Under the pieces are notes generated by a model. The model was given only the letters and a program-made list of their open reading frames with translations. It was not told where the DNA came from and searched no databases. Made by a program: the position numbers and the translations under genes. Below are positions 1-59,856 of a stretch of 59,856 nucleotides of DNA, in pieces; the first letter of the stretch is position 1; the number at the start of each line of letters is the position of its first letter. The DNA lies in assembly GCA_001275005.1 (NCBI GenBank), contig JWZX01003346.1:1-59856 (forward strand), given 5' to 3'. The stretch is from Chrysochromulina tobinii (lineage: Eukaryota > Haptophyta > Prymnesiales > Chrysochromulinaceae).

Positions 1-1615
1 GCGCCTCGGCGGGCGCGCCGTCGCGGGCGCCTCGGACGGTCTGCCGAGCGTCGCGAGATTGCGATTCACGGGAGAGAAGCTGCCGTTTCAGCGCCTGATG
101 GACGCGGCGCAGCCCTCACCTGCAACGGCCGCGGCCGCTGCGACCGGGGGCAGCACACCGAGTGGTGCGCCGGGCGCCGTCGCGGGCGACCTCCAGGGGA
201 GTCGTGTCAAGGAGCCGTTGGCGGTGACTGCGGCGCGTCGTTCACAGCCGGTGCTCGATGCCGTCCAGAGCCAGCTGCGCAAGCAACGGGTGTATGTGAC
301 CACCAACAGCGGTACTGTGCTTTCGCTGCGCGCGGGTGCCGACCTGCAGGTCGCCCTCGACGCTCTCAAGCTGCGGGGACTGCCCCATGAGGCAGCTGCC
401 ACGACGGCGCGCGTCAACGGGCGCACGGTACGGCGCGAGTACAAGCTGCCTAGCATGCACGCGCTCACCACGGCGCCCCGCTCTCCCAAATTAGGTACGG
501 CGCGAGTACAAGCTGCGCAACGGAGACGTCCTGATGCCGCTCGCCACGACGGCGCTCAACTCCTACGCCTGGGTAGCGACCGGTAGGACGACGTACGCCT
601 GGGGCGAGGCGGCCGACTGTGAACGTGAATGGGGCGAGGCGGCCGAGGCGCTCGCGGCGGCGCCCACGCCCGTCCCCTATCCATGGAATCTCGTCGGCTC
701 GCGCCGGGCCGAGGACGCCCTCAACTGGCTCCTGGAGGCTGAGAAGAAGCATGGAAGCGTCGCGTCGCTCGCGCTCGCCAACTGGTGCGCGCTCACGACG
801 GCGCGCTCACGACGGCGCGCTCGCTCCTCGGCGAGGGGAACGCCCTGCATACACGTGCTCACCACGGCGCCCGCTCCCCTCTTCCCCACAGGTGCGCACT
901 CTCGCTCCTCGGCGAGGTGAGCCTGGCGGCGGAGCCCCTCTCGAGCCTCTCGCGGCCCCTGCCCTCGATGGCATGGGCACTCCAAGGGGGGGCGGTGGCG
1001 CTTGTCGAGGCTTGGACGTTACACACGGCGACCTCGGCCCTCATCCGCGCCGTGCCGGGCGTCGCTGCGCGGCCGCCCGACGCGACGCCTACCGGCATCG
1101 CCGCGGACGACGCGACGAGTACCGGTACCGGCTCGTCGCCTACGGACGATGCGTGGGCGAGCGTGTCCAGAGATTTTTGGGTGGGCTTCGCTGCGGCCGC
1201 GCCGCCCGTGCCATTGCGCATCGCCGATGCGTGGGAGAAACTTTTGTGCGCTCTCGAGGTCGAGAAGGCGCTCAGCACGGCGCTCGTGGGCTGCTCCTCA
1301 CCGGCCTTTTTAGGTCTCCTTATAGGGCGCGTGGCGATGGTGCTCATCACGGCGCTCGCGCTGCACGCCGATGTGCAGTTCGGCATCCTGCACGACGTCT
1401 TCTCGCGAGGCAACATGCCCCTCACCGCCCGCGAGCGCCGCGCTGAGCGAACCGTCACCCGACCGGGCGCGCTCGCGCCGCCCGCGCCCACGACGGCGCC
1501 GTCGGCGGCGCTCGGCGCCGAGATGGATCTGGAGCGGCTGGCGGCGGAGGAATCCTTTCGTGACTCGCTCGCCTCCGATCTCGTGCTCCAGGACATCCCC
1601 CTCGAGCTCAACTGA
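1..1615 (+). CDS. Unknown protein, 5' partial, three visible exons
   Basis: The reading frame is open at base 2, so the start lies before the window. Visible exons are 1-427, 495-784 and 892-1615. Removing introns 428-494 (phase 0) and 785-891 (phase 2) gives one continuous frame to the TGA at 1613-1615. The joined protein starts with an Ala/Gly-rich disordered stretch, then a mixed region (QLRKQRVYVTTNSGTVLSLR), then an Ala/Leu-rich helical part. I recognise no domain. Both introns carry module B (GCATGCA..GCTCACCACGGCGC) and lie between direct repeats of exon sequence. The last exon ends in a 44-bp-period tandem duplication that copies the stop codon. Gene model confidence is good because the frames agree; function is unknown. 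Confidence 0.7.
428..494 (+). other. Introner-like intron (67 bp), module B
   Basis: Donor ACG|GTACGG at 428, acceptor TTAG at 491-494. Bases 427-448 and 494-515 are a perfect 22-bp direct repeat containing the splice junction, so the donor lies in copy 1 and the acceptor AG directly precedes copy 2. The unique part holds GCATGCACGCGCTCACCA and a C/T-rich tract. Confidence 0.8.
785..891 (+). other. Introner-like intron (107 bp), module B
   Basis: Donor TG|GTGCGC at 785, acceptor CCCCACAG ending at 891. Flanking copies at about 783-837 and 890-917 share GGTGCGC and CGCTCCTCGGCGAGG; the first copy is expanded by two ACGACGGCGCGCTC repeats. The filler has CATACACGTGCTCACCACGG and a pyrimidine tract. 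Removal restores the frame (Ala-Asn-Trp-Cys-Ala-Leu). Confidence 0.75.
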
Positions 1616-1660
1616 GATCCGATCTCGTGCTCCAGGACATCCCCCTCGAGCTCAACTGAG
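1574..1660 (+). repeat. 44-bp-period tandem duplication spanning the stop codon
   Basis: Bases 1574-1616 and 1618-1660 are the same 43-bp segment, including the last codons and TGA of the gene. The second copy is untranslated. It shows local tandem duplication in a gene whose introns also sit in duplications. Confidence 0.9.
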
Positions 1661-2235
1661 GGAGTCCAGGGACTGTCAGACGCTGTCAGACCCCCCCCGT
1701 CGCGCCGCCCAGGCTTCGCGCTGTACGATCTTTGTGTGTGATACACAGCGTCTCGCTCTCAGACTCAGTGTACATTTTCTGATTCCAGGCGCTACGTCGC
1801 GTGGCTGCAGACTGTAGTAGCAGCAGTGTATAAACATGCGGAAATACAGACGTGTTATCACACACATCCATTATCTCCAGATCCGCAACTCTAAATCTCG
1901 CTTGGCGTGCGTGCTCGTGGGGCCGTGCGTAACATTCATGGACCCTGAGTGCTGAGAATACAACATCACGAGTGACGAGATCAAACTTCAAAGATGAAGA
2001 TCGAAGATGTTCTTGTGTCTGTCACAGATCACTGTCTGCGCCTTACGCGAGTGTCTCCAGACGGCGGTCGTGCGTCTAGCCAAGAGGACTACAAAACTTG
2101 GCTGCGTAGGTGTGAACAGAGGACCATGAAGGTCGGAGGTTGAACCTCGGTCAAGCTCGCCCTCCCTACCCATGGTGTGTGGAGCCGCGCCGCTCATCAC
2201 GTGTCTGCCTCCTCCCATCTCGAGAAAACGCCACG
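1661..2235. other. Intergenic, 575 bp, no gene seen
   Basis: Lower GC than the surroundings, with no convincing frame. It should hold the promoter and leader of the oxygenase at 2236. No tRNA or repeat was recognised. Confidence 0.5.
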
Positions 2236-3075
2236 ATGGCAGCCATCGTTTTGGTGGCCGCTGCCACCAAGACGATGGCCTTCACGTCAACGTCTTTTCT
2301 ACACTCGGCTGATCGCTGCTCACGGAGTGCGTCTCCCGTAGCGCTCGCAAAGGCCCCCAAGTCAAGGTCAGGTGGTGGCGGATTTGGTGCACCGCCGCCA
2401 GCTGCTGTGGCCGTCAAACGGTCCTCAGGGCCAGCAGTACCCAGTCCTTATGACAACGAGCAGTTTGTCGTGTCTGACTATCCACTGCCTATTGAGCCGG
2501 GCCAATCGTCGCTCTTTCTCGGCACCTTCATGATCGAGGATGAATCTGTGTGCGATGACCTTGTGGCCGCATTTGAGGCCGATAAGGCATCGCACAAGGC
2601 GGGCGTCGTCGGCCGCAACAATGGCCAGGTGCTGGACAAGAACAGCAAAGATTCGATTGAGATCAAATTCTTTCCTGACGACCCACGGCCGGCGTGGCAG
2701 CGATACGTGGCCGCCCTCAAGCGGGTCACCAGCCGCTACGTGGAGCAGTACCCCTACGCAGCCAGAGTGGGTGAGTGGGGCCTCTCGTCTCCCACCAATT
2801 TCCAATACTACCCGCCGGGGGGGGGGTACAAGGTCTATCACACCGAACGCGTCGATCGCGTCGAGCCGGGCGCGTCTCGGCACCTCGTGTTCATGACTTA
2901 CCTCAACACTGTGAACGACGCTGGCGGGACGCAGTTCGTCCACCAGAACATTACCGTCCAGCCCGTTAAGGGGCTGACAGTCATATGGCCCGCCGACTGG
3001 ACCTTCTTCCACCGGGGCATACCGTCGCCCACCCAGGAGAAGCGAATCGCCACTGGATGGTTCAACTTTGCTTGA
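2236..3075 (+). CDS. 2OG-Fe(II) oxygenase, prolyl 4-hydroxylase type
   Basis: A 279-residue single-exon protein. The start ATG at 2236 (CACGATGG) fits eukaryotic context. Residues 1 to about 70 are Ala/Ser-rich and look like a targeting or disordered leader. The rest is the double-stranded beta-helix fold: YYPPGGGYKVYH with a following Glu (iron ligands of the HxD/E type), then RHLVFMTYLN, GGTQFVHQN, and KGLTVIWPADWTFFHRG..S, giving the distal His and the 2-oxoglutarate-binding Arg/Lys near KRIATGWF. This is the short soluble P4H-like form common in marine microbes and phages. Substrate cannot be told from sequence. A ten-G run at 2817-2826 encodes the PGGG loop and is a place for assembly indels. 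Confidence 0.85.
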   Translation: MAAIVLVAAATKTMAFTSTSFLHSADRCSRSASPVALAKAPKSRSGGGGFGAPPPAAVAVKRSSGPAVPSPYDNEQFVVSDYPLPIEPGQSSLFLGTFMIEDESVCDDLVAAFEADKASHKAGVVGRNNGQVLDKNSKDSIEIKFFPDDPRPAWQRYVAALKRVTSRYVEQYPYAARVGEWGLSSPTNFQYYPPGGGYKVYHTERVDRVEPGASRHLVFMTYLNTVNDAGGTQFVHQNITVQPVKGLTVIWPADWTFFHRGIPSPTQEKRIATGWFNFA

Positions 3076-3348
3076 GAGATCGCGGACTGTTCCTTTCTTT
3101 CCTCCGTGTTGTCATATTTGCCGACTCGCGCTTGAAATCGTTAAAGGTACCGGTACTCGAGCATGCAGGGGACCATTTGAGTTTCAAAATGTCCGTTCAC
3201 TAAATTTTCCGATTTCCGAGACCTCCGTTTCAAGCGGCTTGGGTTTTTTGTGAACCGCCGAGCCGTTCGCGTGTGGCCTCTCCCTCTATTGGAAGGAGAG
3301 GCGGCAGCTCCTCAGGGCGAAGAGAACAGAGAGGCTCCCCTGGACTAG

Positions 3349-4168
3349 ATGGCCAATGGAGCAGCCATGGCCGCCGCGCGCGCGAAGAAGAAAAGGGAAA
3401 GGGCAGCTAGAGAGCACCAGCTTGACCAGGAGACGGACAGACTGTTTGAGAAGTATGACACAAGCAAGTCAGGGTTGATCGAGAAGGAGGAGCTGCGTGC
3501 GATGCTGATGGCCATCGAGCAGGAGAAGGGGCAACTAACTTTGGTGAGTGAAGCCGGTCTGGAAAAGCTGCTCGATCGCATGCTCAAGAATTACGGCGAG
3601 GAGGGTCCCGAGGGATTGGGTGTCAGCCGCGAGAATGCGCTGACTGCCATGAAGCGGTACCGAGCGTGGCTCAAGCACGAGGAGATGATCGAGCGGCTGT
3701 TCCGGCAAGCAGACGCCAACGACTCACGTACCCTCGAAAGGGGGGGAGAGATCAAGGTCTTTTTGACCCTGGTCGTCAATGAGTTCCCAGAGCTTCGTGG
3801 GATCACGGTCGAAGATTCCGACGTGGACTTCATCCTCGAGCGATGTGATGGGTTCAAGGATGGGGTGAAGAACGAGGTAATAGACATGGAGGAGGCGGGG
3901 CCTGCCGTGGCCACTTGGATCCAGGTGGTCCGAGCCAAGGTGCGCCCACCACGGCGCCTCAAGCCACGCCATCGCGGCACCTCCTCACACTGAACCGCTG
4001 CGCTCTGCGCGACTCGCCGGCCCTCACCGCCCTCACAACCCTCGCCGCCCCTCGCCTTCGCCTCAACCTCGCCGCCCCTCGCCTCTTCTGATCCTCTCGC
4101 GATCGAATCGCTCGCCGTCGCAGCCGCCAAAACCACAGACAACGACCGCCGCGTGCGTCGTCCTGTGA
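3349..4168 (+). CDS. EF-hand protein with a predicted CaaX tail
   Basis: A 211-residue protein from exons 3349-3939 and 4124-4168. The N-terminus is basic and coiled (AKKKRERAAREH). A canonical EF-hand loop follows (KYDTSKSGLIEKEEL, about residues 31-45), then a divergent second one (QADANDSRTLERGGEI) and a third degenerate loop. Unspliced, the frame runs to a TGA near 3993 with a low-quality basic tail. Splicing GTGCGC at 3940 to GTCGCAG at 4123 gives a short exon ending Ala-Ala-Cys-Val-Val-Leu, a good geranylgeranylation CaaX box, and the phases match (591 nt then 45 nt). A calcium-dependent membrane-attached sensor is inferred. The intron is pyrimidine-rich; there is no transcript evidence. 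Confidence 0.65.
3940..4123 (+). other. Intron (184 bp) of the EF-hand gene
   Basis: GTGCGC donor, long CT/CG-rich tract, acceptor GCCGTCGCAG. Phase 0. Without its removal the protein loses the CVVL terminus. Confidence 0.55.
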
Positions 4169-4779
4169 ACACTTTGTGAACACTCTGTGAGCACGTCGTC
4201 GTTTGGGAGGCGCCGTAACGGGCGCGGTGGCGGTGCGGACTGGCGTGCGAGCTAGTGCGTGCGAATACAGGTGCGCGCGAGAGGTGCTGTGACACCGTGC
4301 GTAACCGTGCGTGGGCGTGGGCACACCTCTGAGGCGCACGCATGGGATACAAAATTGGTGGCGGCGGGGTACCAATGTTGTCTGGAGCGCTGCTACAGGT
4401 GGCTCGACACGCGCCGGTCCGATCAGACCACGGACGCGGCGTCCTCCGAGATGCTCTGAGAGATCGTACAACGTACCGAGATAACCTCCGAGATGCTCTG
4501 AGAGATCGTACACGGTACAGCGTACCGAGAGATCGTACTGGCCCGTGACCGTTAGTTGCCGCATGCCGGCACGCGGCTGGGCTTGTCCGTGTGCCTCGTT
4601 GCCTGGGTAGAAGCGTACCCACAACCCAGGCGTCTAGGGGTAGCGGTCCAGTCCAAGGGCGGCACGTTCCGAACGTCACGTTGTTGCAGTAGGGTAGAGC
4701 GCCCACGTACACTTGTTGTCCTACCGTTAACGCGTCCGCGCGGTCGCTCTATCGCGTAAAGGCTAATGCGCTAATCGCT
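4169..4779. other. Convergent intergenic region with short repeats
   Basis: Lies between two convergent genes. It contains GTGAACACTTTGTGAACACT near 4166-4185 and a direct repeat of GAGATGCTCTGAGAGATCGTAC type (about 4448-4470 and 4489-4511, with a third part copy near 4528). No gene is supported. Confidence 0.5.
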
Positions 4780-20370: not shown

Positions 20371-23049
20371 ATGGCGGCCGCCGCTCCAAACGAGCCGAAC
20401 CTGATCAGAGTGGACGGAGCACCGCCGGGAGGGCCGTCGGCAGCTCTACCTCGCTCTCCTGATGCCGCAGCCGTCGCGCGAAAGCTCAAGCAGGCGATCG
20501 TGCAGTTCATGCATGGCGATTCCGACGAGCGCCTCGTGGCTGCCAGGGCGCTGTACGACACGGCGGGCGTGAGCATCGTCATGTGCAGGCAGCTGCTACA
20601 GGAAGCGGGCGCGGCGCTCGTCGCGGGGCTCGACGAGCAGCTGACCAACGACAAGGCGTTCGTGCTCGTCGTGCTGCTCACGCTCAAGCGGATCGCCGGC
20701 CACCTGACGATGGAGGTGAACGATCTGAGAGTCGCGCCGCCGCTGGTCGCGCTGTTGCGGTCGTCCACAGCGTCACTCCGGCGCCACGCCGCCGCCTTGA
20801 TCGAGCTGCTCTGCGCCGAGGACGAGGCGGCCAAAAGCTTGCTCAACGCGGGCGTCGCTCCCGTGCTCTTGCGGCTCGCCCTCGGCGAGCGTGGTGATGG
20901 CGACGACGGTGGCGGCGGTGACGACGCCGGTAGCGGCGGGCAGGGCGGAGACGCCGATCGCAGCGGCGGCCACGGCCGCCGCCGCCGTGGCTGCAGCAGC
21001 GACGACGGCGCAGGCATCAGCAGCGGTGCCGCCGTGTTATGCGCATGCACGGTGCTATGCCGCCTAGCTGAAGACCGAGACACGCGCTATCAAGTTTCGA
21101 CTGCCTTTGTCGAGCACACGGGCCTCGTGCTCGCGCTCGTGGCGCCTCTCGAGTACGATGCGCCCGCGGAGGCCAAGCAAGCGCAGCAGCAGGTGCTCCG
21201 CGCCATCGCCGCCCTCGGGGTGATAGGAGAGTTCAAATCGTCCCTCGCGGCAGAGGGCAACTTCATAGGCCTGCTGTTCCAGCTGCGTGACTCGGCGATC
21301 GCGGGCGTGCCGGCGCTCGCGCACGCGATCGCGGCACACTGGGATGACGACTTCCTCGGATGGGCCTGGCAGACGTGCGCCTCGTGCAAGCAGGTGCGCA
21401 GGATGGCCACTCTGAGGGCTGACGAAGCTCTGAGGGCTGACGAAGGGCGCTCTTCTTCTCTTAATAGCCTCTCTCTCCTCTCCCCCGCTCCTCATCCTCC
21501 CTCCACCCTCCTCCCCCACCCCGCGCAGGTGGCCGCCGAGCTGATGCTCGACCCCGAGACGCCCATCGGGCCCGCCGACGCCTCGGGCGGCGTCGAGCGC
21601 TACACCGTACAGCTCTTCACGGCCCATCGGATCCTGAGGGAGTTCCTCAAGCAGGCACGTTGATTGCCACTGATGGCCTGCCGTGCATGCAAGTGCTCAC
21701 CACAGCGCTATCGGCTCCCCGTCTGCCAATTGGAAGGCGATTGCGACTGATGACCTACAGTGCATGCACGCGCTCACCACGACGCTCCTCTCTTCCTCAA
21801 ACAGGCCGATGAGGTGACGCATGGCTTGCTGCGCCTGCAGGCACAGCTCGATGAGGGCGTGGCCCTCACCGAGAGGTACGCCGGCGTGCTTCGTCAGCGC
21901 TTCGTCATCGGCTCCGACCCGTCGGACGCGCCGGCAGACCCCGACGCGCCGCTTTCCGCTCCACGCGCCTTCGAGGTGCACAACCGACAGCTGGCGCGCC
22001 AGCTCGGAGACCCGCGGCCCTCGGCATGCAAGTGCTCACTACGGCGCACCCTCGCGTCTCCCCACAGGTGCACAACCGACAGCTGGCGCGCCAGCTCGAG
22101 GCCTCCGCGCAGCAGGTGCGCACAAGCTACCGGCAGCTTCTGCTGCACTGCAGCCTGCTCCTCGACGGCGAGCGGACCGTGCAGCGGGCCGAGGGACACC
22201 TTCGCGAGCTCGACGAGCTCGTTCGCGCAGGGAAGGCGGTCGAAGTGACGTTCCTGTGGAAGCAGCAAGCACACGTCGCGCTGCGCCGGGCGCTCATCGG
22301 CCTTTCGCTTCGTCTTGAGCTCCATGTGCGTGCCCTTCTCGCCCAACGCGAGGGCTCCGGCTCGATGCTCGGGCTCGCGGAGCAGGTGCGTCTCGTCAAT
22401 TTCCTCTGATTGCCTCTGATGGCCTCTGATTGCCTCTGATTGCCACTCTCGATCGTATGGTGGAGCAGGTGCGTCTCGTTCATGGCCTCTTGATTGCCTC
22501 TGCTGATGGCCTCTGCTGATGGCCTCTTCTTGCACGCGATCTTGACCCTCCGGGTCGCGGAGCAGGTGCTCGAGGGGCTTCCGCTGCTTCGGAAGGAGGC
22601 GACGGCACTCGAGGGGATCGCCGACGCCGCCGACCGTCTCAAGAGGCGAGGCCTGGGCGAGGGCGGGGCGGGCATGGAGGGGGAAGCGGCCATCCCTGCC
22701 CCCTCCCCCTCCCCCTCCGCCTCCGCCTCCGCCGCCTCCCTTTCGTTTGCGTCCCGCTCCCGACCGGCGCGTACGCTCACCGGCGTGGCGCACGCAGCCA
22801 GCGCCTCCTCGTTCACAGTCTCGAAGCGCCCCCCGCGCCGTGCCGCCTCCGCATCGCGCCTACTCCACCCAGGCCGCCTCGGTGGTAGCCTCAGTGGTAG
22901 CCTCGGCGGCTGCAGTGGCGGCTGCAGTGGCGGCGTGGCCAAATCGCCGAGCGGCGCGACCGCGAGCGCCGACGCAGCCGCGGCGGGAGCAGCGGCGGCA
23001 GGAGTAGATGCGGCGGCAGGAGCGGCGGCAGCAAGCGCGAAAGGCAGCA

Positions 23050-23086: not shown

Positions 23087-25738
23087 GAGCGGCGGCGGCG
23101 GCGGCGGCGGCGGGAGCTGGCCATCCAGTGGGGGCTACCTGAATCCGATCTCGGGCTCCGAGATCATGCCCAAGACGACGCCGATCTCGGGCTCCGAGAT
23201 CATGCCCAAGACGACGCCGATCTCGGGCTCCGAGATCATGCCCAAGACGACGTCCCCCCGCCATGCCCCCGCGTGGCTCAGCTTGAGTCTGAGCCACCCA
23301 AGCCTCGGTCGTCCACTCACACCCTCGGTGCTCACCTACCGGTCGTTGCCGGCGCGTGAGCAAGCGGAGGTCGCGAGCGAGACGCGACTCGCCCTCGCCA
23401 TGGCAGCGCGGCGCCACGGCTCTGCCAACGTCCTACTCACGGCGCGGTCGGCTGCGGCCGACCGACCGAGCGCCGTACCGAGCGAGGCGGCGCTGCTCCC
23501 CGAGCGCCGTACCGAGCGCACCGACGGCGGCGCGAGTGGCGGCGAGGGCGAGGAGGCCGAGGGCGGTGGCGCTCGGTACGGCGCTGACGGCGAGCTTGGC
23601 GACGACGAGGGCGGTGGCGCTCGGCACGGCGCTCACGTGCGCTTCGAGTCCGACGAGACGAAACCATCGATGACGAAACCATCGATGACGAACCCATCGA
23701 TGACGAAACCATCGATGACGAACCCATCGATGACGAAACCATCGATGACGAAACCATCGATGGCACCACGGCCGTCCCAGGCACCAGCACCGCCGACGAC
23801 GCCCGGTCGACCCTACTCCGCGGGCCTGCTGCGAGCGCCCAACACGGCGCTGTCGAGCGGCCGCCCCACCTCGGCCGCGAGCACGCCCAACACGACGCTC
23901 GGTCGACCCGGCTCGGCCACGTCCACGCGCGCGAGCCTCGCGGGCGTCGTGCTGGGCGCGGGCACGGAGCCGCCGAGCTTCGCGAGCAAGCAGAGGCTCG
24001 CCACGCCCTTCCTCGCGTCCGACCCGCATGAGCGCCGTCGACGACGCCAGATGAGCGCCCCTGGCGAGACTGAGCTGCGTGAGCTCGTGACGAACCCTTC
24101 CAAGCTCGGAGGTCGCGCGAGATTTCTTCGGCTGCAGCAGATCTTCGAGGGCATCGACGAGGACTCGTCGGGCGCGATCTCGCAGCGCGAGCTGCGCACC
24201 TTTCTCGACCGCGCGGGCCTCGAGGTCACCGATCGAGAGCTCACCTCTGATTGCCTCTTGATTACCTCTGATTGCCTCTGATGACCGATGATTGCCTCCC
24301 TCATCAGGTCTCCGATCGGGAGCTCACCTCATGGATCGACAACTCGGCATTCGACAATAACGGCGAGGTCGAGTTTGTCGAGTTCATCGAGGTCATCAAC
24401 ATGCTCAGCCGGCGCGCGCGTGCGTACGAGCGCGAGAAGGCGGTGCGCGAGTACGGCGGCGGCGGTGCGAGCCCGAATGGTGCCGAGCAGTCTCGACAGC
24501 AGGCGGCGGGGGCTGCAGGGCGTGAAGACGCCGACGCCGACGCTGACACCGACGGGGAGGGGGGGGCCGACGACGCCCCCTCCCCGCCTCCCGCCGCCGC
24601 CGCTCGGGCTGGCGATCTCGAGGAGCTCGAGATCGAGACGGTCCTCAATGAGTCCCGCCGCAGCGCCGCGCCGCCGCCGCGCTGTGCCGCGATGGAGAGC
24701 ACGCGCCGCAAGGCGGCTCTCTTGTCTTATTACCTGCCCACGACGCCCTTCCAGCCTATGGGCATCGTCCGCAGCGCCGCGCCGCCGCCTTTGCTCACGG
24801 CGGACGCGCGGGCGGACTCGGCGCACTTCCAGCCTGCCGATGCGGATGACCGGCCAGCGATTCAGATGCACCGGTCGGAGCTCGCTGATCTGTTCCCACA
24901 GGCGGCGCACTACGCCACCGCCCTCGTCATTCACAGCTTCGTCGAGCCCACGGCAGCTGGGGCGACCGGCGGCAAGGCGGGCGGAAAGGGCGGCGACGAC
25001 AGCACGTCCGACGGCGTCCCTCTCATCACCCTATTGCAGCTACAGGCTTGGTCTCGCCTGACCGGCTTCCCCGACCTCTCGCCCCTCTCGGGGCCCCAAT
25101 GGCTGACCGTCCTCCTGCGCCGGATGAGCGTGGTCCCGGGCACCGCCCTCGTACTTGGCCCTGACGGCGCACCCATGCTCACGGGCGTGCGCTGCGCGGC
25201 GCCCGCGGCACGTCTGCCCCCCCTCGCTGGCTGGGATGCGCTACAGCTATTAGCGTGGTTTCGGTGTGCCCGGCTGCTCGATCTGCCCGAGGCATCGCCG
25301 CGCACGCTCGCCCGACTTCCCCTCGATCAGCTGTGGCCGACGCTTGGCAACTGCGTCAGCCAGACGCGCTCGCTCATCGTCGCCAACGGCGGCCGGCTCC
25401 AGCCGCCACCCGCGCCATCAGCGGCGGCCGCGGCCGTGGCGCTCAAGGCGGCGCTCGCTGGGGGAGATCTCGCTGGGGGAGATGGCGAGGCCGGCGTGCC
25501 GTCCGTGGCGCGTGCCGCTGCGCCCGCGACGGCGCCCGGCGCTCGCGCAGCCTCGCGCTACGACCAGGGCGCCCGCGTCGAAGGCTCGGTGCTCCTCGAG
25601 CCTCCGCCGCCGCCACCGCCTTCGCATTTGGTCGCTGCCAAGCTCGCAGGCGCGCGCCACCGGGCGGTCATCAACGCCGCGCCTACGTCTCGCTTGCGGG
25701 CGCGCAACAGCCACATGCTGCGGCGCATCGACTCGTGA
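20371..25738 (+). CDS. Large armadillo-like and EF-hand protein, six exons
   Basis: Exons 20371-21393, 21529-21654, 21805-21975, 22068-22385, 22566-24224 and 24308-25738 join without a stop into 1,575 residues. The N-terminal part has armadillo-like helices (FVLVVLLTLKRIAGHLTMEV, VAPPLVALLRSSTASLRRHA). A Gly/Asp/Arg-rich loop interrupts them near 20890-21020. Residues encoded by 21.8-22.6 kb are helical (HNRQLARQLEASAQQVRTSY). A disordered Ala/Gly/Ser region with three PISGSEIMPKTT units and seven TKPSM-like units follows. An EF-hand pair then appears: IDEDSSGAISQRELRTFL and DNSAFDNNGEVEFVEFIEV. The C-terminal 400 residues are unassigned, with Pro/Ala linkers. Four of five introns belong to the introner-like class, and one (21655-21804) needs a GC donor. 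A calcium-responsive scaffold, perhaps ciliary, is only a guess. Confidence 0.7.
21394..21528 (+). other. Intron (135 bp), in frame
   Basis: CAG|GTGCGC donor, strong C/T tract, acceptor CCGCGCAG|GTG. Its length is a multiple of three and it has no stop, so retention would add 45 residues. It contains two copies of CTCTGAGGGCTGACGAAG. Confidence 0.7.
21655..21804 (+). other. Nested introner-like intron (150 bp), modules A+B twice, GC donor
   Basis: TTCCTCAAGCAGGC (21643-21656) and TTCCTCAAACAGGC (21793-21806) flank it. Only splicing CAG|GCACGT to AACAG|GCC keeps the frame, making a GC-AG intron. Inside, module A followed by B occurs twice: TTGATTGCCACTGATGG.. with GCATGCAAGTGCTCACCA (to about 21706), then GATTGCGACTGATG.. 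with GCATGCACGCGCTCACCA (to about 21779). Confidence 0.75.
21976..22067 (+). other. Introner-like intron (92 bp), module B, 33-bp perfect flanking repeat
   Basis: Bases 21974-22006 and 22066-22098 are identical. Donor GAG|GTGCAC lies in copy 1 and the acceptor CCCCACAG abuts copy 2. Between them is GCATGCAAGTGCTCACTACG and a pyrimidine tract. Splicing leaves a single copy coding Val-His-Asn-Arg-Gln-Leu. Confidence 0.9.
22386..22565 (+). other. Introner-like intron (180 bp), module A array, three repeat copies
   Basis: TCGCGGAGCAGGTGC occurs at 22375-22389 and 22555-22569, and a third close copy (TGGAGCAGGTGCGTCTCGTT) is inside at 22461-22480. The filler is CTGATTGCCTCTGATGGCCT-type decamers. 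It looks like two insertions at the same splice-competent site. Confidence 0.85.
23042..23115 (+). repeat. GGC trinucleotide run coding poly-Gly
   Basis: An almost unbroken GGC/GGA run within exon 5 of the large gene, encoding about 24 Gly with few Ser. Assembly length may be unreliable. Confidence 0.9.
23145..23252 (+). repeat. 36-bp tandem repeat, three units, coding
   Basis: Three near-identical 36-bp units encode PISGSEIMPKTT three times. Each unit holds an inverted pair GATCTCGG/CCGAGATC that could form a hairpin. Confidence 0.95.
23658..23762 (+). repeat. 15-bp tandem repeat, seven units, coding
   Basis: Units ACGAAACCATCGATG or ACGAACCCATCGATG encode T-K/N-P-S-M seven times, a disordered Ser/Thr-rich array suited to phosphorylation. 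The alternation A/C at one position marks unit types. Confidence 0.95.
24225..24307 (+). other. Introner-like intron (83 bp), module A, 24-bp flanking repeat
   Basis: Bases 24224-24247 and 24307-24330 match at 22 of 24 positions. Donor GAG|GTCACC, acceptor CATCAG|GTCTCC, phase 0. Filler: CTGATTGCCTCTTGATTACC and further TGATTGCC units. It splits the EF-hand pair. Confidence 0.9.
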
Positions 25739-42465: not shown

Positions 42466-45164
42466 TCATGGGTGCCAGGCGTCGCCGGCGCCGCGGAGGC
42501 CGTACTTGAGGCGTAATGCAAGCGACTGCATCAGGCTATCGAAGGCGTCCGGCGCGTGCGCGAGGATAAGCCTCACCTCAAGGGGAAGTGCTTCGCGCCA
42601 CAAGAGGCGCGTCCACACCGCGGCGAGGGCATGCCGCTTGGACATCAGGGCTGTCGTGTTGGCGGCCAGACGGCGCAGGATCATGGGCAGCTGTGGCAGG
42701 TCGCGAGGCTCGAGACGCACGGCGATGGCGTCCCAGTCGAGTAGAAGCCCTTCAAAGGCCTGCAGCACGGGAGGGTAGGCCGAGGCCTCGTCCCGCTGGA
42801 TGAGCACTGGAATGCACCCGAGGGCTGCGCTGTGGAACACGCGCATGCCCCAGCCGGTGCCACTCGGGCACAAGCAGAAGATGGTCTGGAGCATCTCGGC
42901 GTCGAGAGAGACGTACGGCGGAGGCGGCTTGAGGTCCGTCGCACGCAGCTGGAAGCCCTCCTCCTTGTGGAATCGGCGGTAGACCTCCCAGCGCACCCCG
43001 AAGGAGTAGTGGTCGAGGAAGCCGTGCTTCTGACGGCACTTGCGCCCGAGCTCGGCAAGACCGTTCATGTGATCGTAAGTCTGCCAGCAGATGGCGCCGT
43101 GGAAGAAGAGGAGCTTGGTGCGCCCGTGCCATGCCTTGTGGTTCGCGTCGGCGGCGGCGGCGCGCGCGGCGGCGGCTGGGTCGGTGGGGAATTGTCGGTG
43201 GAAGGTGAGGAAGGGCGACTTGGCGACAATGTGGTCGCGCAGCACGCCTGGAATGACGAGGTCGCGCGTGGCGTCGAAGCAACGCTCCGTCGGCACGCCT
43301 CCGAGCCCCGTGACGGCACCCCAATTGCTCAGAAGGATCGAGGCGCGCGTCTGGTCCCAGATCGATCCCCAGGGGTTCGAGCACCCCGCCGCGTCGCGCG
43401 TGTTCGACCAGATGTGATCCGCGCCGCCCGACCTGTTGAAGTATGGCCACACGCTGCGCACATATTGGTGCGCACGCCAGTAGACCTCCGGATTGCCCCA
43501 CGAGCCATGGAAATCCCACACGGGCACGTAGTAAAAGTCCGCACGCGAGGGATCCGTCGTTCGGTGCGCCGAGCGGAGCAGCGAGATGTGCACCGCTTTG
43601 AAGCCCCGATAGTCGGCTGGCCCGTGTGAATAGAAGGCCCATGTCGGCTCGGCCTTGAGTGCCAGGACGTTCATGCGGGCGGGCAGCTCATACACGTACA
43701 CGCACGGGCGCACGCATGTGCCCGCGGCAGCGCCCATGCTAGCAGCGCCGGCGCCGCCTTCAATGCCCGCCTGTGAATGCCCTCGTGTGAATTCGGCGCC
43801 GCCTTCAATGCCGCCGCCGCCTTCCTCGCTGGCTCCGCCGCCGCCGCTGCCTCGTGACGTGAGGCTTGAGGGGATGGTGGGTGGCGCGGCAATTCCCAGG
43901 TGGCCAGCGGGCAGCGCATGCAACGCCTCCGTGCTCGCCCTGAACGGCTCCAGCGAACAGTCGACCCCGTAATAGGGCGGTCGACAGAGGCAAAAGCCAA
44001 AGTCGCACCGGCCGCGGTTGAGGCAATCTGAGACACAAAACCATCTGGGATGCCTCTCGCACGCTGCACCAAAGTAGCCTGGGATGCACTGGCACGTGCC
44101 ACCCTGGCACACACCCCGCCCATTGCACCGGTCGGGGCATTGGTCCAGCGGCGAACCGACGCAATCAATGGTCGCGCCGCTGCCATCGCCTCGGGTCGGA
44201 TGGCGCTCACCTGATCAAGGAGGCCATCAGAGGTCATCCGAGGCTATACGAGGCAATCCGAGGCAAACAGAGGGCTCGGATGGCACGCACCCCTCGAGTG
44301 CTCGCACACAGGCTTGTCACAAAAGAAGGCGGACGAGTCGTTATAGACGCACCAGCCGTGATGGGTCTGCGGGCGTGCGAGCGCAGGCTGCACGTGCAAT
44401 TCGCATTGGGGACCCCATCGGTGGCGTGGACAGTCGCAACGACCCAAATCGGGCAGGCACACGCCCTCGTTTGCGACGCACTCGCGCGGGCACTGTTGGC
44501 GGCCCCAATGCCACGCATTGCCGGTGAGCACTGGGATGATGCGTGTGGCGCCGCCCATGGCGCGCGGCGGCATCGCCACCACCGGCGAGTCGCGCTCATC
44601 CCATCCTGACTGCTGCATGATGGCCAGAAGCTCAGCGTCGCGCTTGGACATGCCGCTCGCGTACCCGACCTTGTTGCCGTGGGCGACAATGGCGACGCCC
44701 CATGAGTCACGCACGTCCGCCGAGGCATCCGGACGATTTGCCGGGTGCGCCGCCATGTACGCGAGGTGCAGCGCGTATGCGGACGGCAGCGGTGAAAGCG
44801 GCTTGAGAGGGCCAACGTCAATGGCCCGAGCTGCACTCGTTGCCACAGCGCCAGCGGCGGCACTGGCGGCGCCCTCGACGATGGTAGCGCTCGTGTTCGT
44901 CGTCGGTTCTTCACGGTTGCGCGCACGCGCTTTTCTCTGCCGCCGCCGCCGCCGCCGTTGCTTCTCCGCCAAGAACCTGTCCTCGAGGTCGATCTTGCAA
45001 GTAGGGCCCGGGCACTGCTGTAGGGCCCGGGCGTGGCGCGCGAGCCGCACGGGCTCTACAGCAACGTGCGGCGGCGGCGCGGGGGACGCGGTGCGGGAGA
45101 ACAAGAGCCCCGCCGCAATCGCGCCGAGAGCGAAGCACAGCAATGTGCTCCTTGCTGAGGACAT
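42466..45164 (-). CDS. EGF-like and exostosin-family (GT47) glycosyltransferase
   Basis: Exons 45164-44291 and 44210-42466 encode 872 residues. Residues about 5-25 are a signal anchor (STLLCFALGAIAAGLLF), so it is a type II Golgi protein. A basic stem follows (EKQRRRRRRQRKARARNR). Three Cys-rich EGF-like modules come next: CVANEGVCLPDLGRCDC, CNGRGVCQGGTCQCIPGYFG and CLNRGRCDFGFCLCRPPYYG. The catalytic part is exostosin-like: CVYVYELPARMN, ADFYYVPVWDFHGSWGNPEV, HIWSNTRDAAGCSNPWG, TKLLFFHGAICWQTYDH and FCLCPSGTGWGMRVFHSAAL with GCIPVLIQRDEA. It adds sugars to surface polysaccharide or glycoprotein. The intron is introner-like and joins Ser-Arg-Gly to Glu-Arg-His in phase 1. Confidence 0.85.
44211..44290 (-). 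other. Introner-like intron (80 bp), module A
   Basis: On the minus strand the donor is AGGG|GTGCGT and the acceptor CTTGATCAG|GTGAGC. A flanking repeat of about 18 bp (GTGNGNGCCATCCGANCC) contains the junction. The filler has CTCGGATTGCCTCG and CTCTGATGGCCTCC units, in sense orientation. Confidence 0.85.
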
Positions 45165-48595: not shown

Positions 48596-50812
48596 TCAAG
48601 TGCGCAGCAATGAGCCCCCATCTGGCTCCATGCCGGCCCGAATCTCCTCCAGACGGCGGCGCTGTCGCCCCTCGCTGTCGAAGTTGGCCGGCGAGAGCCA
48701 CGCCGAGAGCGCCGCGCCCACTCGAGGCCACTCGGCGTCAAGGATCGAGAACCACGCCGTGTCACGGTTGCGCTGTCGGACGACTGTGGCTTGGCGCGTC
48801 ACGCCTTCGAAGACGAAGCCAAGGCGCAGGGCGGCTGCGCGTGAGCGCACGTGGCGCGCGTTGCACTTCCACTCAACGCGCCGGTAGCCGTTGCTAAAGC
48901 TCCACTGGAGCATGAGGAAGAGCGCCTCGGTCGCGGGCGGCGTGCGAGCCAGTTGCGGCCCGAAGCTCAGATGGCCTATCTCAAGACATCCATGCGCGGC
49001 GGCGATGCGGAGGAAGGCGGCGAGGCCGAGGGCGACGCCGTTCACTTCGAGCGCGAAGAAGAGCGGGTCGGCGCTCGTCGTCTGTGGACCGAGCCATGCG
49101 CCGAGCGCCGCCGGCGAGTCGAACGGACCGTACGAGAGGAATGTCCAGTGCACGTCGCCCGCGCCGGCATAGGCGGCGTGGAGTGCGCTCGCGTGCTCCA
49201 AAGCAAGCGGCACGCATGCCACACAGGCGCCGCGTAGCGTCAGTCGGACCGGCGACGGCGGCGGCTTCCAGTCGGAAGCCAGTTGAGGCCCGATGGGTAT
49301 GCTGACGGCAGGCAGGCCGATGGGCATGCTAACGGCAGCAGAGTCGTGCACTTGCCACACGGGGGCCTGCCAGTTGGTACGCGGAGGCGTCGCGCTCAGC
49401 AGCGGAGCCGTCATGCCGCTCAGGCTGGTCTTCTGTCTGTTGAAGAGTGTGGCGGCCTCGGCAGGCGCCGTTACGGGCGCGCTCGATAATCCCACGCCTT
49501 CACCCACGCCTTTACCAAAGCTTTCACCGATGCCTCCGGCCACGATGCCAAAGTTGCTCGGATCGAGCCATGCACAATAGCAGCGCTCGATGGCGGGCCA
49601 CTCCGGGCGCGTGATGGAGAACACTGCCTGATCGCTCGTGCGACCCTTTAGGACGAACCGTTGGCGGAAGGTGACTTCATACGTAAAGCCGAGTCGCTGC
49701 GCAGCCCGCATGGCGGGCTCATTGTGAGGATCGCACGACCATTCGACACGACGGTAGCCGCACGCGAATGCCTCGCGGATCTGGAGGATCATCGCCTCGG
49801 TGCCCGCGGCGGCGCCTGCAATCCTCGGCGAGATCATGATCTCCGCAATCTCCGCGGTGCCTCCCTCTGGAGCGACGCTTATCAGCGCGCCAAGACCCGC
49901 CGCGGTGCCACTCGCAAGGTCGACGTACCTGATGACGGGGGCACTCAGATAGCATGAGGTGCAATCAGAGGCGATCAATGGCCCGTCGCTCGCAAGGTCG
50001 ACTTACACGCCGAAGTAGGCGCCCGTGCCGGCCTCGAGGCTCGCGAGGTACGCCCACAGCGCCTCGCGACTTGAGAAGCCGCTCTGGAAACTGTACGCCC
50101 AACGGCTGTGGCTTGGATCGTCTTGGAAGGCTGCAAAGAGCTCATCGCAATGCCTGTCTGCCTCGAGAGGCTCGACGCGCACGAATCGGCCGACGTGTGT
50201 CGCGCGGTGCAGCCGCTTTGGTGGCGCCCACAGCGCGTCCGACGCTGCGGTGCACAGGGTGGGCAGGTATTCATCGAGCACCTGGTGGCCGCCATGAGGC
50301 ACGGCGTGCAGGACCACATCCGCCATGCCGTCCACGTACAGCTGCGAGAGCCCGAAGCTCCTGACAGGGTCGTCGCGCGCCCAAAAGAGCACTGCCGGCA
50401 GCCGCGCGATCCTGGCGATCAAAGAAGTGTCCGTGAGCGACGGCGCAACCAGCACCAGCATGCGCACCATCATCGGGTGAGCGGCAGCAAATGCCACGGC
50501 CTCACCGCCGCCCCATGACTTGCCCATGATGACTGCGCTTGTGGCACCCGCATGCTTGTAGATGCCCAGGAGTAGCTTCTCCGTGTCCACGCTTGCCATG
50601 AAGCCGGGCTTCGTGGCGGCATTCGAGTGCAGGTTAGGCAGCAGCACGCGCAGACCCACTGTGGCCAACTCACGGGCAGCTGGCTCCCACTCTGTGATGA
50701 CGTCTAGGTTGGCGCTCTTGCCCTGTATGCACAGGACGAGAGGCGCCCCGGCGCAGCCAAAGTCTAGCGCGTCCACGGGACCGAGGTGCGTCGCGAGCTG
50801 CACGGCCGCCAT
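48596..50812 (-). CDS. Alpha/beta hydrolase fused to two GNAT acetyltransferase domains
   Basis: Exons 50812-50007 and 49928-48596 encode 712 residues. Residues about 1-190 are an alpha/beta hydrolase: VLCIQGKSANLDVITEW, nucleophile motif GKSWGGG, an acid in FWARDDPVRSFG and HGGHQ. Two RimJ/RimL-like GNAT domains follow. The first spans the intron (RFVRVEPLEADRHCDELFAA, GGTAEIAEIMISPRIAGAAA, GYRRVEWSCDPHNEPAMRAA, QRLGFTYE). The second repeats the plan (GCLEIGHLSFGPQLARTPPA, GYRRVEWKCNARHVRSRAAA, LRLGFVFEGVTRQ). The domains share RVEW.C and RDTAWFSI-like endings. The intron lies inside GNAT 1, so the hydrolase and GNAT parts belong to one transcript. Substrates are unknown. Confidence 0.8.
49929..50006 (-). 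other. Introner-like intron (78 bp), module A
   Basis: Minus strand: GGCGT|GTAAGT donor, CGTCATCAG|GTACGT acceptor. GTCGACCTTGCGAG is repeated at both ends within a copy of about 20 bp. Filler: TTGATCGCCTCTGATTGCAC. Unspliced, the frame stops at TAA right at the donor. Confidence 0.9.
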
Positions 50813-55287: not shown

Positions 55288-55892
55288 GGGAGGCGGGCCG
55301 GATCAGATCTGTCCTCTGTCCTCTGTCCTATGTCCTCTGTCCTCTGTCCTCTGTCCTCTGTCCTCTGAGCCGAGGGTTTGGCTCGTGCTAGACTTTGGGA
55401 AATTTCCCAAAGTAGCCGCTTGTGTGAGCGACGGTCTGGCTTTTCGTTAGAAAAAAACGGGTTCACACGAGTCCCTCGATTGTGCCGGCGCTCAAGGCGG
55501 CGCTCGACCTGCGCGAGCGCACAGCGTTCCGTTCATTCTCGTGGTGGGTGGGCCCACCCCGCGTGAACGTTTTTGTGGGTGGGTGGCTGAGGCCGGAGGC
55601 CTTAAAATTTTAGTCTGAGTGGGTGGGTGGGTATGGTGTGCAAGCGGCCAGGGCCTCATAGTGAGTGGGGTGGGTGGGTGTTCCTGCCGCCGCGGCCAGA
55701 CCTCCCCCTGGTTTCCGACCTCAACGATACACGTGTCACGGGACAGGAGTCCGACATCTTGGTTTTCGAGCTTACTTTCGAACTCGTATGCATGCAAGAC
55801 AAATCAAGTCGAATCAAGTATGAACGCAATATTTCACAGCAGAGTAGCTGACTTTTTACCACGAAACGCAATCGAGGGAACGTGTGCATGCG
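55105..55892. other. Intergenic, 788 bp, repeat-rich
   Basis: Holds the 97-bp and 7-bp arrays, a GGGAAATTTCCC palindrome near 55397-55408, GTGGGTGGGTGGG strings near 55575-55680 (possible G-quadruplexes), and AATCAAGTCGAATCAAGT about 75 bp before the next ATG. Confidence 0.6.
55310..55368 (+). repeat. GTCCTCT heptamer microsatellite
   Basis: About eight GTCCTCT units (one is GTCCTAT) directly after the 97-bp array. Confidence 0.95.
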
Positions 55893-57566: not shown

Positions 57567-57582
57567 CGTTGGCGCCAACAAA

Positions 57583-58200: not shown

Positions 58201-58411
58201 ACGCGCGCACCGGGCAGCCAGCGAGCGAGCCCGCCGCTGCCATGAGAGTCGGCGTGCCAGCGGCGAGACCGCGTCTGCGTCCGGTCCGCCGGCCCCCCAA
58301 ACCACCCGTTCTCCTCACCTGTGCGTGTCAACACTGTATAGAATCAACCCATGCAATTTTCGTTGAATACTTAGATTATCATCACAGTGTGGGGGCTCGT
58401 CAGCATGGCGC

Positions 58412-59856
58412 TCAGCCGCACTCGTCAAGGAAGACGAGCTGGTCGACGAGAGGCCAGAGGCGCAGCTTCGACTCGCCCAGGATGCTGAGCAGCTCGGAGC
58501 GCATGCGCTCGTCACAGCGCTCGTCGTCGTCCTCGCCCTCGGCCTCCACGCCCTCTTCGTCGCGCCGTCGCAGGTACGCATACACACGCTCAAACGTGGC
58601 GACGCCCAACTCCCGCCGGCAAGCTTCACGCAGAGCGGCGGCCCTCTCGGCTCCGGCAAGGCCGTGAGGCTCAGCGACGTCGTGGGCGTCGGCGTGGGCG
58701 TCGGGGCCGTCGCCGCCCTCGCCGTTGTAGTAGTCATAGTCGGGGCCTTCGTACGCATCGTCGCCCTCGTACTCCTCGTACTCATCGTACCCTGCCGCCG
58801 CCTCACCGTACCCTTTGACGTCCCCTACGATAGCGAGCTGCGGCGCGGCCGGCAGCCACGCGGCATCGTCGGTCAGGGCACGAAGGGTGCCACCTGGTAC
58901 TACGCGCTGCGCCGCGAGTGCCACTCCGAGCGCCGTGTCGAGCGCGGAGAGCTGCGCGTCGTCGAGGGTACCCGAATGGTACTCGTACAGCGCCGTGTCG
59001 AGCGCGCTCTCGAGCAGCGCGTCGGCGTCGGCGGCGGCGGCGGCGTCAGCGTGGTCCCCGATGCTGCCGCTGCCGCTGCCGCCGCTGCCGGCCGAGCTCA
59101 TGTACCTTGACGGAGGGAGAGTCAAGCGCGCCATGGTGAGCACTTGCATGCAAGGCAGGTCATCAGTGTGGCAATCAACGTACCTTGACGGAGGGAGAGT
59201 CTCGCGCGCCATGGTGAGCACTTGCATGCAAGGCAGGTCATCAGTGTGGCAATCAACGTACCTTGACGGAGGGAGAGTCTCGCGCAGCGTGCTCAGCACG
59301 ACGCTCGACACGACAGGCTCGCAAGCAATGAAGCCCTCCACCGCCGCAGCGGCTTTGCCAGCAGTGCCGGCGGAGGCGGCGGGCGGGGGGCGTCGCTTCG
59401 AGTGGCTCGTAGCGACCAGGGTGGCGCGGAGGAGCTGAATGTTGAGCTCACACGCCCCAAGCGTCTCCTCGCACTCCTCGAGCTGCCGCTCAACCTCGGC
59501 ATCTAAAGAAGGCCGCGGAAGGAGCGCTGTGCTGAGCGCTGTGCTGAGCGCTGTGCTGGAGGCATGTTGCACGGCGGCGAGCTCGCGCGCGAATTCGTCA
59601 ATCCCCATCGGCGGCGGCGGCGGCAGCACGTCGGCGCCGTCGAGGCCCTCGGTACCGTCGGCGGTGGCGGCGAGAGGTTCCGCTGACTTGTCGCGGGCGG
59701 GCGTGATGGGCGGAGATTCGTCACGGAGGGCAGCGAGGGTATGGCTGAGGAGCTCGTCCGCGCTCTTCGACTTGAGGCGCTCCTCGAGCGACTCCTCGGA
59801 CGAGAGGGACGCATGCAGCGCGACGGCGTCGTAGTATGCAGCCTCCTCCGCCAGCA
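58412..59856 (-). CDS. Unknown acidic protein, 5' partial
   Basis: The frame is open to base 59856, so the start is outside the window. Exons are 59856-59262 and 59105-58412 around the tandem introner-like intron. The upstream part has coiled-coil text (SLEERLKSKSADELLSHTLA, DAEVERQLEECEETLGACEL). The later part holds an acidic Tyr-rich patch (GYDEYEEYEGDDAYEGPDYD) and a helical C-terminus (GVATFERVYAYLRRRDEEGV, SKLRLWPLVDQLVFLDECG). If the intron is retained the protein gains two 26-residue repeats of the YVDCHTDDLPCMQVLTMAR kind. No family was recognised; the C-terminal helices recall centrosome/NEK-binding proteins only loosely. Confidence 0.65.
   Translation of the reverse strand, partial: LAEEAAYYDAVALHASLSSEESLEERLKSKSADELLSHTLAALRDESPPITPARDKSAEPLAATADGTEGLDGADVLPPPPPMGIDEFARELAAVQHASSTALSTALSTALLPRPSLDAEVERQLEECEETLGACELNIQLLRATLVATSHSKRRPPPAASAGTAGKAAAAVEGFIACEPVVSSVVLSTLRETLPPSRYVDCHTDDLPCMQVLTMARETLPPSRYVDCHTDDLPCMQVLTMARLTLPPSRYMSSAGSGGSGSGSIGDHADAAAAADADALLESALDTALYEYHSGTLDDAQLSALDTALGVALAAQRVVPGGTLRALTDDAAWLPAAPQLAIVGDVKGYGEAAAGYDEYEEYEGDDAYEGPDYDYYNGEGGDGPDAHADAHDVAEPHGLAGAERAAALREACRRELGVATFERVYAYLRRRDEEGVEAEGEDDDERCDERMRSELLSILGESKLRLWPLVDQLVFLDECG
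59106..59261 (-). other. Tandem introner-like intron, two perfect 78-bp units with modules A+B
   Basis: Units 59261-59184 and 59183-59106 differ only at two bases near the end of the module. Each reads, on the minus strand, GTACGTTGATTGCCACACTG, then ATGACCTGCCTT, then GCATGCAAGTGCTCACCATG and a copy of the exon flank ending CCGTCAAG. The exon flank (ending CGTCAAG) precedes the first unit, and GTAC follows the second. Each unit starts GTACG and ends AAG, so each is a complete intron-like unit. Its length is a multiple of three without stops. Confidence 0.9.

What the first reader, a model, noticed from the sequence alone, without database searches (positions are those of the whole stretch)
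428..59261. A family of introner-like elements that carry their own donor/acceptor duplication
Nine introns in five genes (428-494, 785-891, 21655-21804, 21976-22067, 22386-22565, 24225-24307, 44211-44290, 49929-50006, 59106-59261) sit between direct repeats of exon sequence. The repeat always spans the splice junction: the donor GT (GC once) is at the duplicated site in copy 1 and the acceptor AG abuts the same site in copy 2. Splicing therefore restores the ancestral exon exactly. Between the copies is non-exon filler from one family: module A (CTGATTGCC/CTGATGGCC units) and module B (GCATGCAAGTGCTCACCA plus pyrimidine tract). Repeats run from 14 to 33 bp, longer and more variable than the 8-bp duplications I know for Micromonas and Aureococcus introners. 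Ordinary introns in the window (NDUFB10, MIC19-like, HIR) lack all of these features. I infer recent intron gain by insertion with long target duplication, or by templated repair of staggered breaks.
Basis: partly seen in the sequence, partly recalled or inferred. Interest (0 to 1): 0.93.

Follow-up and report, generated by a model that had tools for sequence, protein, structure and literature searches.

The report
Introns born from long exon duplications
In the genome of what is likely an alga, a short repeated piece of DNA sits between two copies of a stretch of exon in many genes, and because the duplicated exon carries a predicted splice site many of these inserts would be cut out as new introns, while in one open reading frame the same piece stays in frame as codons, which makes repair of broken DNA a likely source of introns here.

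Summary
All nine window introns lie between direct repeats of exon sequence that straddle both splice sites. Both modules are genome-wide in a 53-Mb photosynthetic genome: 2,235 module-B matches against 4 for the reversed pattern, 4,966 overlapping module-A matches against 0. In a sample, 74 clean module-B insertions have exon duplications of 15-57 bp, median 30.5; earlier introner families have 3-9 bp (PMC9860276). The same 24-bp core survives in three ways: with its own acceptor, taking the donor from the duplication; with its own donor, taking the acceptor; or unspliced and in frame (nine copies in one frame, eight antisense). Paralogues of two tested genes read through the site, and spliced proteins align without a gap to solved structures there. 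No terminal inverted repeats beyond chance, no fixed duplication length, and the nearest relative of a copy is on the same contig more often than in shuffles. I favour patch-and-fill repair of long-stagger breaks over transposase or LINE action. Splicing is predicted; no RNA or sister strain was available. New variant of a known kind (introners).

The parts
428..494 (+). Predicted intron 1, R type, core B with own acceptor; exon repeat 427-449 / 494-516 (23 bp, identical)
   Evidence: core at 453-470
785..891 (+). Predicted intron 2, R-like, core B; exon repeat 778-797 / 885-904 (20 bp, 0.80) with internal 14-bp tandem expansion
   Evidence: core at 847-864
21655..21804 (+). Predicted intron 3, GC donor, two core-B copies with 5' body; exon repeat 21643-21656 / 21793-21806 (14 bp, 0.93)
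   Evidence: cores at 21685-21702 and 21762-21779
21976..22067 (+). Predicted intron 4, R type, core B; exon repeat 21974-22006 / 22066-22098 (33 bp, identical)
   Evidence: core at 22024-22041
22386..22565 (+). Predicted intron 5, module A; exon repeat 22368-22389 / 22548-22569 (22 bp, 0.91)
24225..24307 (+). Predicted intron 6, module A, inside an EF-hand pair; exon repeat 24223-24247 / 24306-24330 (25 bp, 0.92)
44211..44290 (-). Predicted intron 7, module A units; exon repeat 44273-44291 / 44193-44211 (19 bp, 0.84)
49929..50006 (-). Predicted intron 8, module A units, inside an acetyltransferase domain; exon repeat 49989-50006 / 49911-49928 (18 bp, 0.94)
59106..59261 (-). Predicted intron 9, two tandem 78-bp units of core B with 5' body; exon repeat 59258-59299 / 59102-59143 (42 bp, 0.83); frame also open if unspliced
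   Evidence: cores at 59134-59151 and 59212-59229

Best explanation
These are introners in which a 24-bp core (module B) or an array of ~10-bp units (module A) lies between two copies of a stretch of exon (15-57 bp for the core), and the duplicated stretch supplies one or both predicted splice sites so that splicing would restore the exon; the duplication was likely made when a break with long staggered ends was filled in from both sides around a short patch copied from a nearby introner. Shown by sequence: the core, the duplications, the splice register, the open frames and the intron-free paralogues. Predicted: that the GT-AG introns are spliced, and that CTCAC in the core is the branch site (its A lies 22-33 nt before the exon in 28 R cases). 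Inferred: that insertion is blind to strand, frame and splicing, and that selection keeps three kinds of survivor. R: the duplication starts at or beside the donor GT, and the patch runs from at or near GCATGC through a pyrimidine tract to AG. L: the patch starts with the donor, typically GTACGTTGATTGCC or close to it, and the duplication ends in AG. C: no splice register, the core is kept as codons, and patch plus duplication add up to a multiple of three. Untested: the enzyme or lesion that makes the stagger, and whether the patch is copied from DNA or from intron RNA.
For: Duplication length is long and variable: 74 clean core-B cases, median 30.5, IQR 23-35, range 15-57; 40 clean module-A cases, median 27, range 13-62. 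Two unlike cores share one architecture, which argues for a machinery that does not read element ends. Terminal inverted runs of 6 or more: R 0 of 28, L 1 of 10, inside 1 of 11, no register 2 of 25, all near the shuffled rates. Exact GY-AG register in 49 of 74 core-B cases (28 R, 10 L, 11 inside) and 26 of 40 module-A cases. Conservation over 134 sites runs from position 0 to 23 and falls at once on both sides (positions 0-17 were used to find the sites, 18-23 and the drop to the left were not). Cases without register have a period that is a multiple of three more often: 22 of 39 against 20 of 75 (Fisher p 0.002; some cases are tandem neighbours and not independent). One frame in L040 holds nine core copies, eight antisense and one sense; of the three antisense frames the one with a TGA is used by none of the eight. 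Nearest relative of the acceptor tail is on the same contig for 16 of 54 sites against a mean of 3.6, none of 5000 shuffles as high (sites under 250 bp apart collapsed); module A 10 of 33 against 3.8, 45 of 5000 shuffles as high. Only a weak target preference at the ragged edge of 28 R sites. One Exo_endo_phos_2 match in the genome.
Against: 49 of 134 core-B sites had no flanking repeat at my threshold. 25 of 74 clean cases are not in ungapped splice register; some of these look R by eye if 1-3-nt indels are allowed, which I did not count by script. Two of the ten L cases (in L031 and L036) do not start with the GTTGATTGCC body and may be misfiled. A scan for repeats without using the modules gave 42 of 104 GT-AG compatible against 33, 22 and 18 for three mock motif pairs, so the signal is tied to the modules. 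For ten R-class fillers of 9 nt or more no convincing donor was found in the sampled DNA, only partial matches on other loci, so the local template rests on tail similarity. The R class has a constant 3' end and a ragged 5' end, as target-primed reverse transcription would give. Ten of the twenty 10-kb loci were chosen as introner-rich and L051-L065 were chosen for the long 5' body, so class proportions are not genome estimates.
Confidence: 0.5

Rival explanations
1. SINE-like retroposition: an RNA with the core, perhaps an excised intron ending in CACAG, is copied into nicked DNA by a LINE-type protein; 5' truncation gives the ragged left end and offset nicks give the variable duplication.
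For: Variable duplications and ragged 5' ends in the R class with a constant AG end. 26 RVT_1 matches in the genome, 22 over the cut-off.
Against: The L class has the constant end on the other side and a ragged 3' end, and the core-only class has neither. Only one Exo_endo_phos_2 match (other endonuclease types were not searched). Copies resemble those on the same contig more than chance, which retroposition in trans would not give.
Confidence: 0.2
2. Replication template switching or slippage: a polymerase leaves the exon, copies a nearby introner and returns upstream, so that exon sequence is duplicated without any double-strand break.
For: Local similarity of copies, tandem patch-plus-duplication arrays (11 of 85 repeats contain element pieces; 59106-59261 in the window) and perfect patch-free tandem duplications of 44, 97, 108 and 114 bp in the window.
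Against: Duplication lengths peak near 30 bp instead of falling off from short ones, though my threshold hides those under about 14 bp; no donor-recipient microhomology was demonstrated.
Confidence: 0.17
3. Non-autonomous DNA transposon as in Micromonas or Aureococcus, moved by an unknown transposase with a loose stagger.
For: Well over a thousand similar copies and splice-site supply by the target duplication, as in published introners (PMC9860276).
Against: No terminal inverted repeats beyond chance, no fixed duplication length, ragged ends, and two unlike cores with one architecture.
Confidence: 0.1
4. Ordinary old introns that happen to be filled with minisatellites, or an assembly artefact.
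For: Many sites have drifted repeats, and the array at 18451-18635 is intron-like without a long repeat.
Against: Duplications 50 of 84 against 2 of 78 with exchanged flanks; intron-free paralogues; frame kept at nine coding copies.
Confidence: 0.03

Closest known systems
Introners with target-site duplications (Micromonas, Aureococcus, Symbiodinium, Chrysochromulina; Gozashti et al. 2022, PMC9860276: abstract, first part of Results, the section on DNA-based spread and the TSD/TIR method read)
   Same: Repeated element creates introns in many genes; a splice site comes from the duplicated target; families that bring the acceptor and families that bring the donor are both described there.
   Different: That paper gives 3-9 bp duplications for earlier families and often inverted repeats, and describes the mode family by family; here 15-57 bp, no inverted repeats beyond chance, and one core used in both modes and also unspliced.
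Florenciella introners that carry neither splice site (PMC9860276, Fig. 2E legend read)
   Same: Both splice sites come from the insertion site, as in window introns 21655 and 22386 and the inside class.
   Different: Here the same core also occurs with its own splice site; duplication length there is not given in the part read.
Daphnia pulex new introns from staggered breaks (PMC4202315: passages read)
   Different: Repeats there 4-12 bp and the source of most new introns unknown; here about 30 bp and fillers from repeated cores.
Cryptococcus introns gained by repeat expansion (PMC2395259: passages read)
   Same: Near-identical introns multiplied inside one gene, as in the tandem units here.
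   Different: The passages read describe expansion of intron-bearing repeats, not a core that enters new sites.
Amoebophrya introner elements (PMC7789003: passages read)
   Same: Direct repeats over the exon-intron borders, introns spread like mobile elements.
   Different: Direct repeats there 3-5 nt with 8-20 nt inverted repeats and mostly non-canonical splice sites; here GT/GC-AG and no inverted repeats beyond chance.
Direct repeats near intron borders (Rogers and Bendich 2025, PMC11782384: passages read)
   Same: Reports repeats of 4-30 bp (mean 11.4) at borders of 213 introns and proposes break repair.
   Different: The repeats of 22 bp or more in the table rows seen are of plastid introns at 72-86% identity; here up to 57 bp, often perfect, tied to one core.

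Membership tests
Introner (Gozashti et al. 2022) | Many introns at different sites share sequence | tested here: met
   Core B 2,235 matches at up to 2 mismatches, 24-bp core 1,368 at up to 1, module A 4,966 overlapping; reversed controls 4, 0 and 0. How many of these lie in introns was examined only in the sample.
Introner (Gozashti et al. [quoted passage not shown]
   In 28 R introns the first 17-45 nt are duplicated host exon, in 10 L introns the duplication of 16-39 bp holds the other end; only one end is shared. The published screen would tend to miss them (inference).
Introner (Gozashti et al. 2022) | Insertion at a new site that duplicates the target and takes a splice site from it | tested here: met
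   49 of 74 clean core-B cases in exact register; 26 of 40 module-A cases.
Introner (Gozashti et al. 2022) | Removed by the spliceosome | not testable with these tools
   No RNA data. Indirect: 8 of 20 tested spliced products (20 chosen by eye from 50) have a Pfam domain over its cut-off that spans the junction; two of the eight are one tandem pair.
DNA-transposon introner (MITE type) | Terminal inverted repeats | tested here: not met
   Inverted terminal run of 6 or more in 0 of 28 R, 1 of 10 L, 1 of 11 inside, 2 of 25 without register; near the shuffled rates.
DNA-transposon introner (MITE type) | Target duplication of short fixed length | tested here: not met
   15-57 bp, median 30.5, sd 9.5.
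Non-LTR (LINE/SINE) retroposon | Constant 3' end, 5' truncation, variable target duplication | tested here: inconclusive
   R class fits; L and core-only classes do not.
Non-LTR (LINE/SINE) retroposon | Genome encodes LINE-type endonuclease plus reverse transcriptase | tested here: inconclusive
   RVT_1 26 matches, Exo_endo_phos_2 one; PF03372, restriction-like and GIY-YIG types not searched.
[quoted passage not shown]
Staggered-break intron (Daphnia type) | Presence or absence between strains | not tested
   No sister strain held. Within the genome, paralogues read through the site in 19 of 19 (phosphatase) and 26 of 26 (SNF2) other matches.

The most novel reading that the evidence does not exclude
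A transposase-free route of intron gain: a break-repair process that duplicates about 30 bp of exon and drops in a 24-bp branch-site core (or an array of 10-bp units), blind to strand and frame, so that one element family writes new introns in two mirror-image ways and, where splicing is impossible, writes new in-frame peptides.
Probability: 0.42. Interest if true: 0.88.

Novelty: new variant of a known kind. Interest (0 to 1): 0.76.

Why it matters
How introns are gained is a long-standing question; the largest survey puts most known mass gains down to DNA transposons (PMC9860276). Here the scar is long enough to read, the same core is caught as acceptor-bearing intron, donor-bearing intron and coding insertion, and the unspliced coding copies give a view of insertion before the splicing filter. 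That makes it possible to separate the insertion step from selection. The both-ends similarity rule of that survey would tend to miss such introns (inference).

Tried and rejected
Module-free repeat scan: 104 repeat clusters, 42 GT-AG compatible against 33, 22 and 18 for mock motif pairs; too weak to use alone, so the counts rest on module-centred searches. Donors of the R-class fillers: no convincing one for ten fillers of 9 nt or more. Target motif at the ragged edge: only a weak C before and G after the edge. Transposon with fixed ends: disfavoured. Rfam (gathering threshold) and tRNA scans of the window: nothing. Viral vector: an exact 24-base module-A word in no IMG/VR contig, core B exactly in one (L066), in the last 60 bases of a contig whose open frames look phage-like (my reading of the translations, no family search); a chimeric contig end is the likely reason, so I did not build on it. 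Organism: 58 chlorophyll-binding matches, some of them fragments, show a photosynthetic eukaryote; it could not be named. The nine-copy frame in L040 gives no domain over its cut-off (UIM 17.9 bits against 21; Zc3h12a-like NYN 19.9 against 23).
Full report
What is in the window. Splicing gives frames of 479, 1365, 573 and 590 codons in four genes, and keeping any one of their eight introns shortens the longest frame. In the fifth gene (59106-59261) the insert is a tandem pair of 78-bp units and the frame stays open either way, so it may be coding.

Genome-wide scale. The window is contig C2187 of a 53.15-Mb assembly in 2,253 contigs. Core B (18 bases, up to 2 mismatches) has 1,066 + 1,169 matches and its reversed control 1 + 3. 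The 24-base core GCATGCAAGTGCTCACCACGGCGC at up to one mismatch has 662 + 706 against 0. The 5' body GTTGATTGCCACTGATGACC has 177 + 234 against 0. The module-A unit pair has 2,391 + 2,575 overlapping matches against 0. The genome has 58 chlorophyll-binding matches, so the host is a photosynthetic eukaryote; it could not be named. Copies are clustered: of 84 sites in 260 kb, one lay in the 100 kb of L041-L050, while ten loci picked as rich held 76 and the window seven.

Duplications against chance. Pairing each site with its own downstream flank gives a repeat of score 20 or more in 50 of 84 sites; with another site's flank, 2 of 78. For module A, 52 of 81 clusters reach score 13 against 6 with exchanged flanks. 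In the larger set, 134 core-B sites (up to 4 mismatches, overlapping loci collapsed) gave 85 flanking repeats; 11 contain element pieces and were set aside; the 74 left have a median of 30.5 bp, IQR 23-35, range 15-57. Module A: 40 clean repeats among 71 clusters, median 27, range 13-62. Copies inside introns drift, so the upper lengths are probably underestimates (inference), and my threshold hides repeats under about 14 bp.

One core, three survivors. In 28 R cases the duplication begins at or beside the donor and runs into the downstream exon; the patch begins at or near GCATGC, often after a short filler, and ends with a pyrimidine tract and AG, so the donor is host sequence and the acceptor comes with the patch. 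In 10 L cases the duplication runs into the upstream exon and ends in AG, so the acceptor is host sequence; in eight of the ten the patch starts with the donor and GTTGATTGCC body, two do not and may be misfiled. L055 is the cleanest, with a perfect 35-bp duplication around a 48-bp patch. In 11 the register lies inside the duplication. In 25 there is no ungapped register. Among the cases of both modules without register 22 of 39 periods are multiples of three, against 20 of 75 of the others (Fisher p 0.002).

The coding survivors. In L040 a frame of 1,044 codons on the minus strand (plus coordinates 1548-4679) holds nine copies of the 24-bp core with 0-1 mismatch: one sense, read HASAHHGA; six antisense read GEHLHA or alike; two antisense read AVVSTCM. 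The third antisense frame, which holds a TGA, is used by none of the eight. Four clean ones have duplication plus patch of 35 + 25, 25 + 20, 31 + 29 and 21 + 27 bp: in three neither part is a multiple of three but the sum is; in the fourth both are. The same frame ends at an L-type intron (plus 1473-1553). No Pfam domain passes its cut-off in this protein; a Zc3h12a-like RNase match after the intron reaches 19.9 bits against 23, so the gene call rests on the open frame and the period rule. A second open frame, in L018, holds two sense copies with period 48.

Do the spliced exons restore real proteins? Fifty spliced products passed a length filter; I tested twenty chosen by eye. In eight a Pfam domain over its cut-off spans the junction: EF-hand (window 24225), SNF2, ion channel, armadillo (three, two of them one tandem pair of introns), filamin, dual-specificity phosphatase. 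Against solved structures, the phosphatase (2e0t), SNF2 (9ear) and the window's acetyltransferase (3tcv; intron 49929-50006) align without a gap at the junction; for the ion channel the alignments also run through. In the same genome, 19 of 19 other phosphatase matches and 26 of 26 other SNF2 matches read through the site in one frame; the nearest SNF2 paralogue is 74% identical over residues 2-94. The introner-bearing genes instead match in two overlapping pieces, the overlap taking in the duplication.

Mechanism. Against a transposase: lengths are not fixed, inserts have no inverted ends beyond chance, and two unlike cores share the architecture. Against LINE-driven retroposition: the ragged side changes between classes, one Exo_endo_phos_2 match was found beside 26 RVT_1 matches, and copies resemble neighbours: 16 of 54 nearest relatives of acceptor tails on the same contig against 3.6 expected, 0 of 5000 shuffles; module A 10 of 33 against 3.8, 45 of 5000. 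The reading I favour is that a break with ends some 15-57 nt apart is filled in and bridged by a short patch from a nearby introner; this is inference. Template switching during replication is a close rival; perfect patch-free tandem duplications of 44, 97, 108 and 114 bp in the window show that local duplication is common here. The core brings a CTCAC whose A lies 22-33 nt before the exon in R introns, which fits a branch site (recalled consensus), so an insertion at an AGGT-like site could splice at once (inference). The exon base before the donor is G in 24 of 28 R cases.

Known kinds. Introners with splice-site supply from the target are published (PMC9860276), with 3-9 bp duplications for earlier families. 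Daphnia staggered-break introns have 4-12 bp repeats (PMC4202315), Amoebophrya introners 3-5 nt (PMC7789003), and a survey of 213 introns gives 4-30 bp with mean 11.4 (PMC11782384); of these papers I saw passages or sections only. In six library searches and the passages read I saw no family with duplications of this length, nor one core in mirror-image and coding modes; papers outside the library (Huff et al. 2016 and later Gozashti work; recalled) were not seen.

Limits. No RNA, no sister strain, no whole genome in hand; rich loci were oversampled; thresholds miss old copies and short duplications; ordinary introns of the window were not compared.

Noticed in passing
window 18451-18635: Array of about 17 units TGATTGCATGC that starts CAG|GT and ends GGCAG|G, so it reads like an intron; its units share words with modules A and B, but the best flanking repeat is only 13 bp at score 10.5.
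   Followed up: partly
window 19209-19253: Four units of the same 11-mer on the opposite strand; best flanking repeat 8 bp.
   Followed up: partly
window 54602-55288: Three neighbouring perfect tandem duplications of 114, 108 and 97 bp, and one of 44 bp at 1574-1660; patch-free duplications may come from the same process.
   Followed up: no
L040:1548-4679: Open frame of 1,044 codons with nine core copies on both strands and in several frames, ending at an L-type intron.
   Followed up: yes
L066:4495-4554: IMG/VR contig of 4,554 bases whose last 60 bases are an R-type cassette with acceptor, after phage-like frames; likely a chimeric contig end.
   Followed up: partly
L035 (contig C90): Four of the six module-A inserts listed for this stretch share the local unit variant GACCGCTGAT and the tail GATTGCACTCCTCAT, as if spread within the gene.
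   Followed up: partly
L037, ion-channel gene, minus strand: Double insertion removed as one 138-bp unit, with the exon piece coding for SWKGLY present twice; the period is a multiple of three but the frame has stops if unspliced.
   Followed up: no
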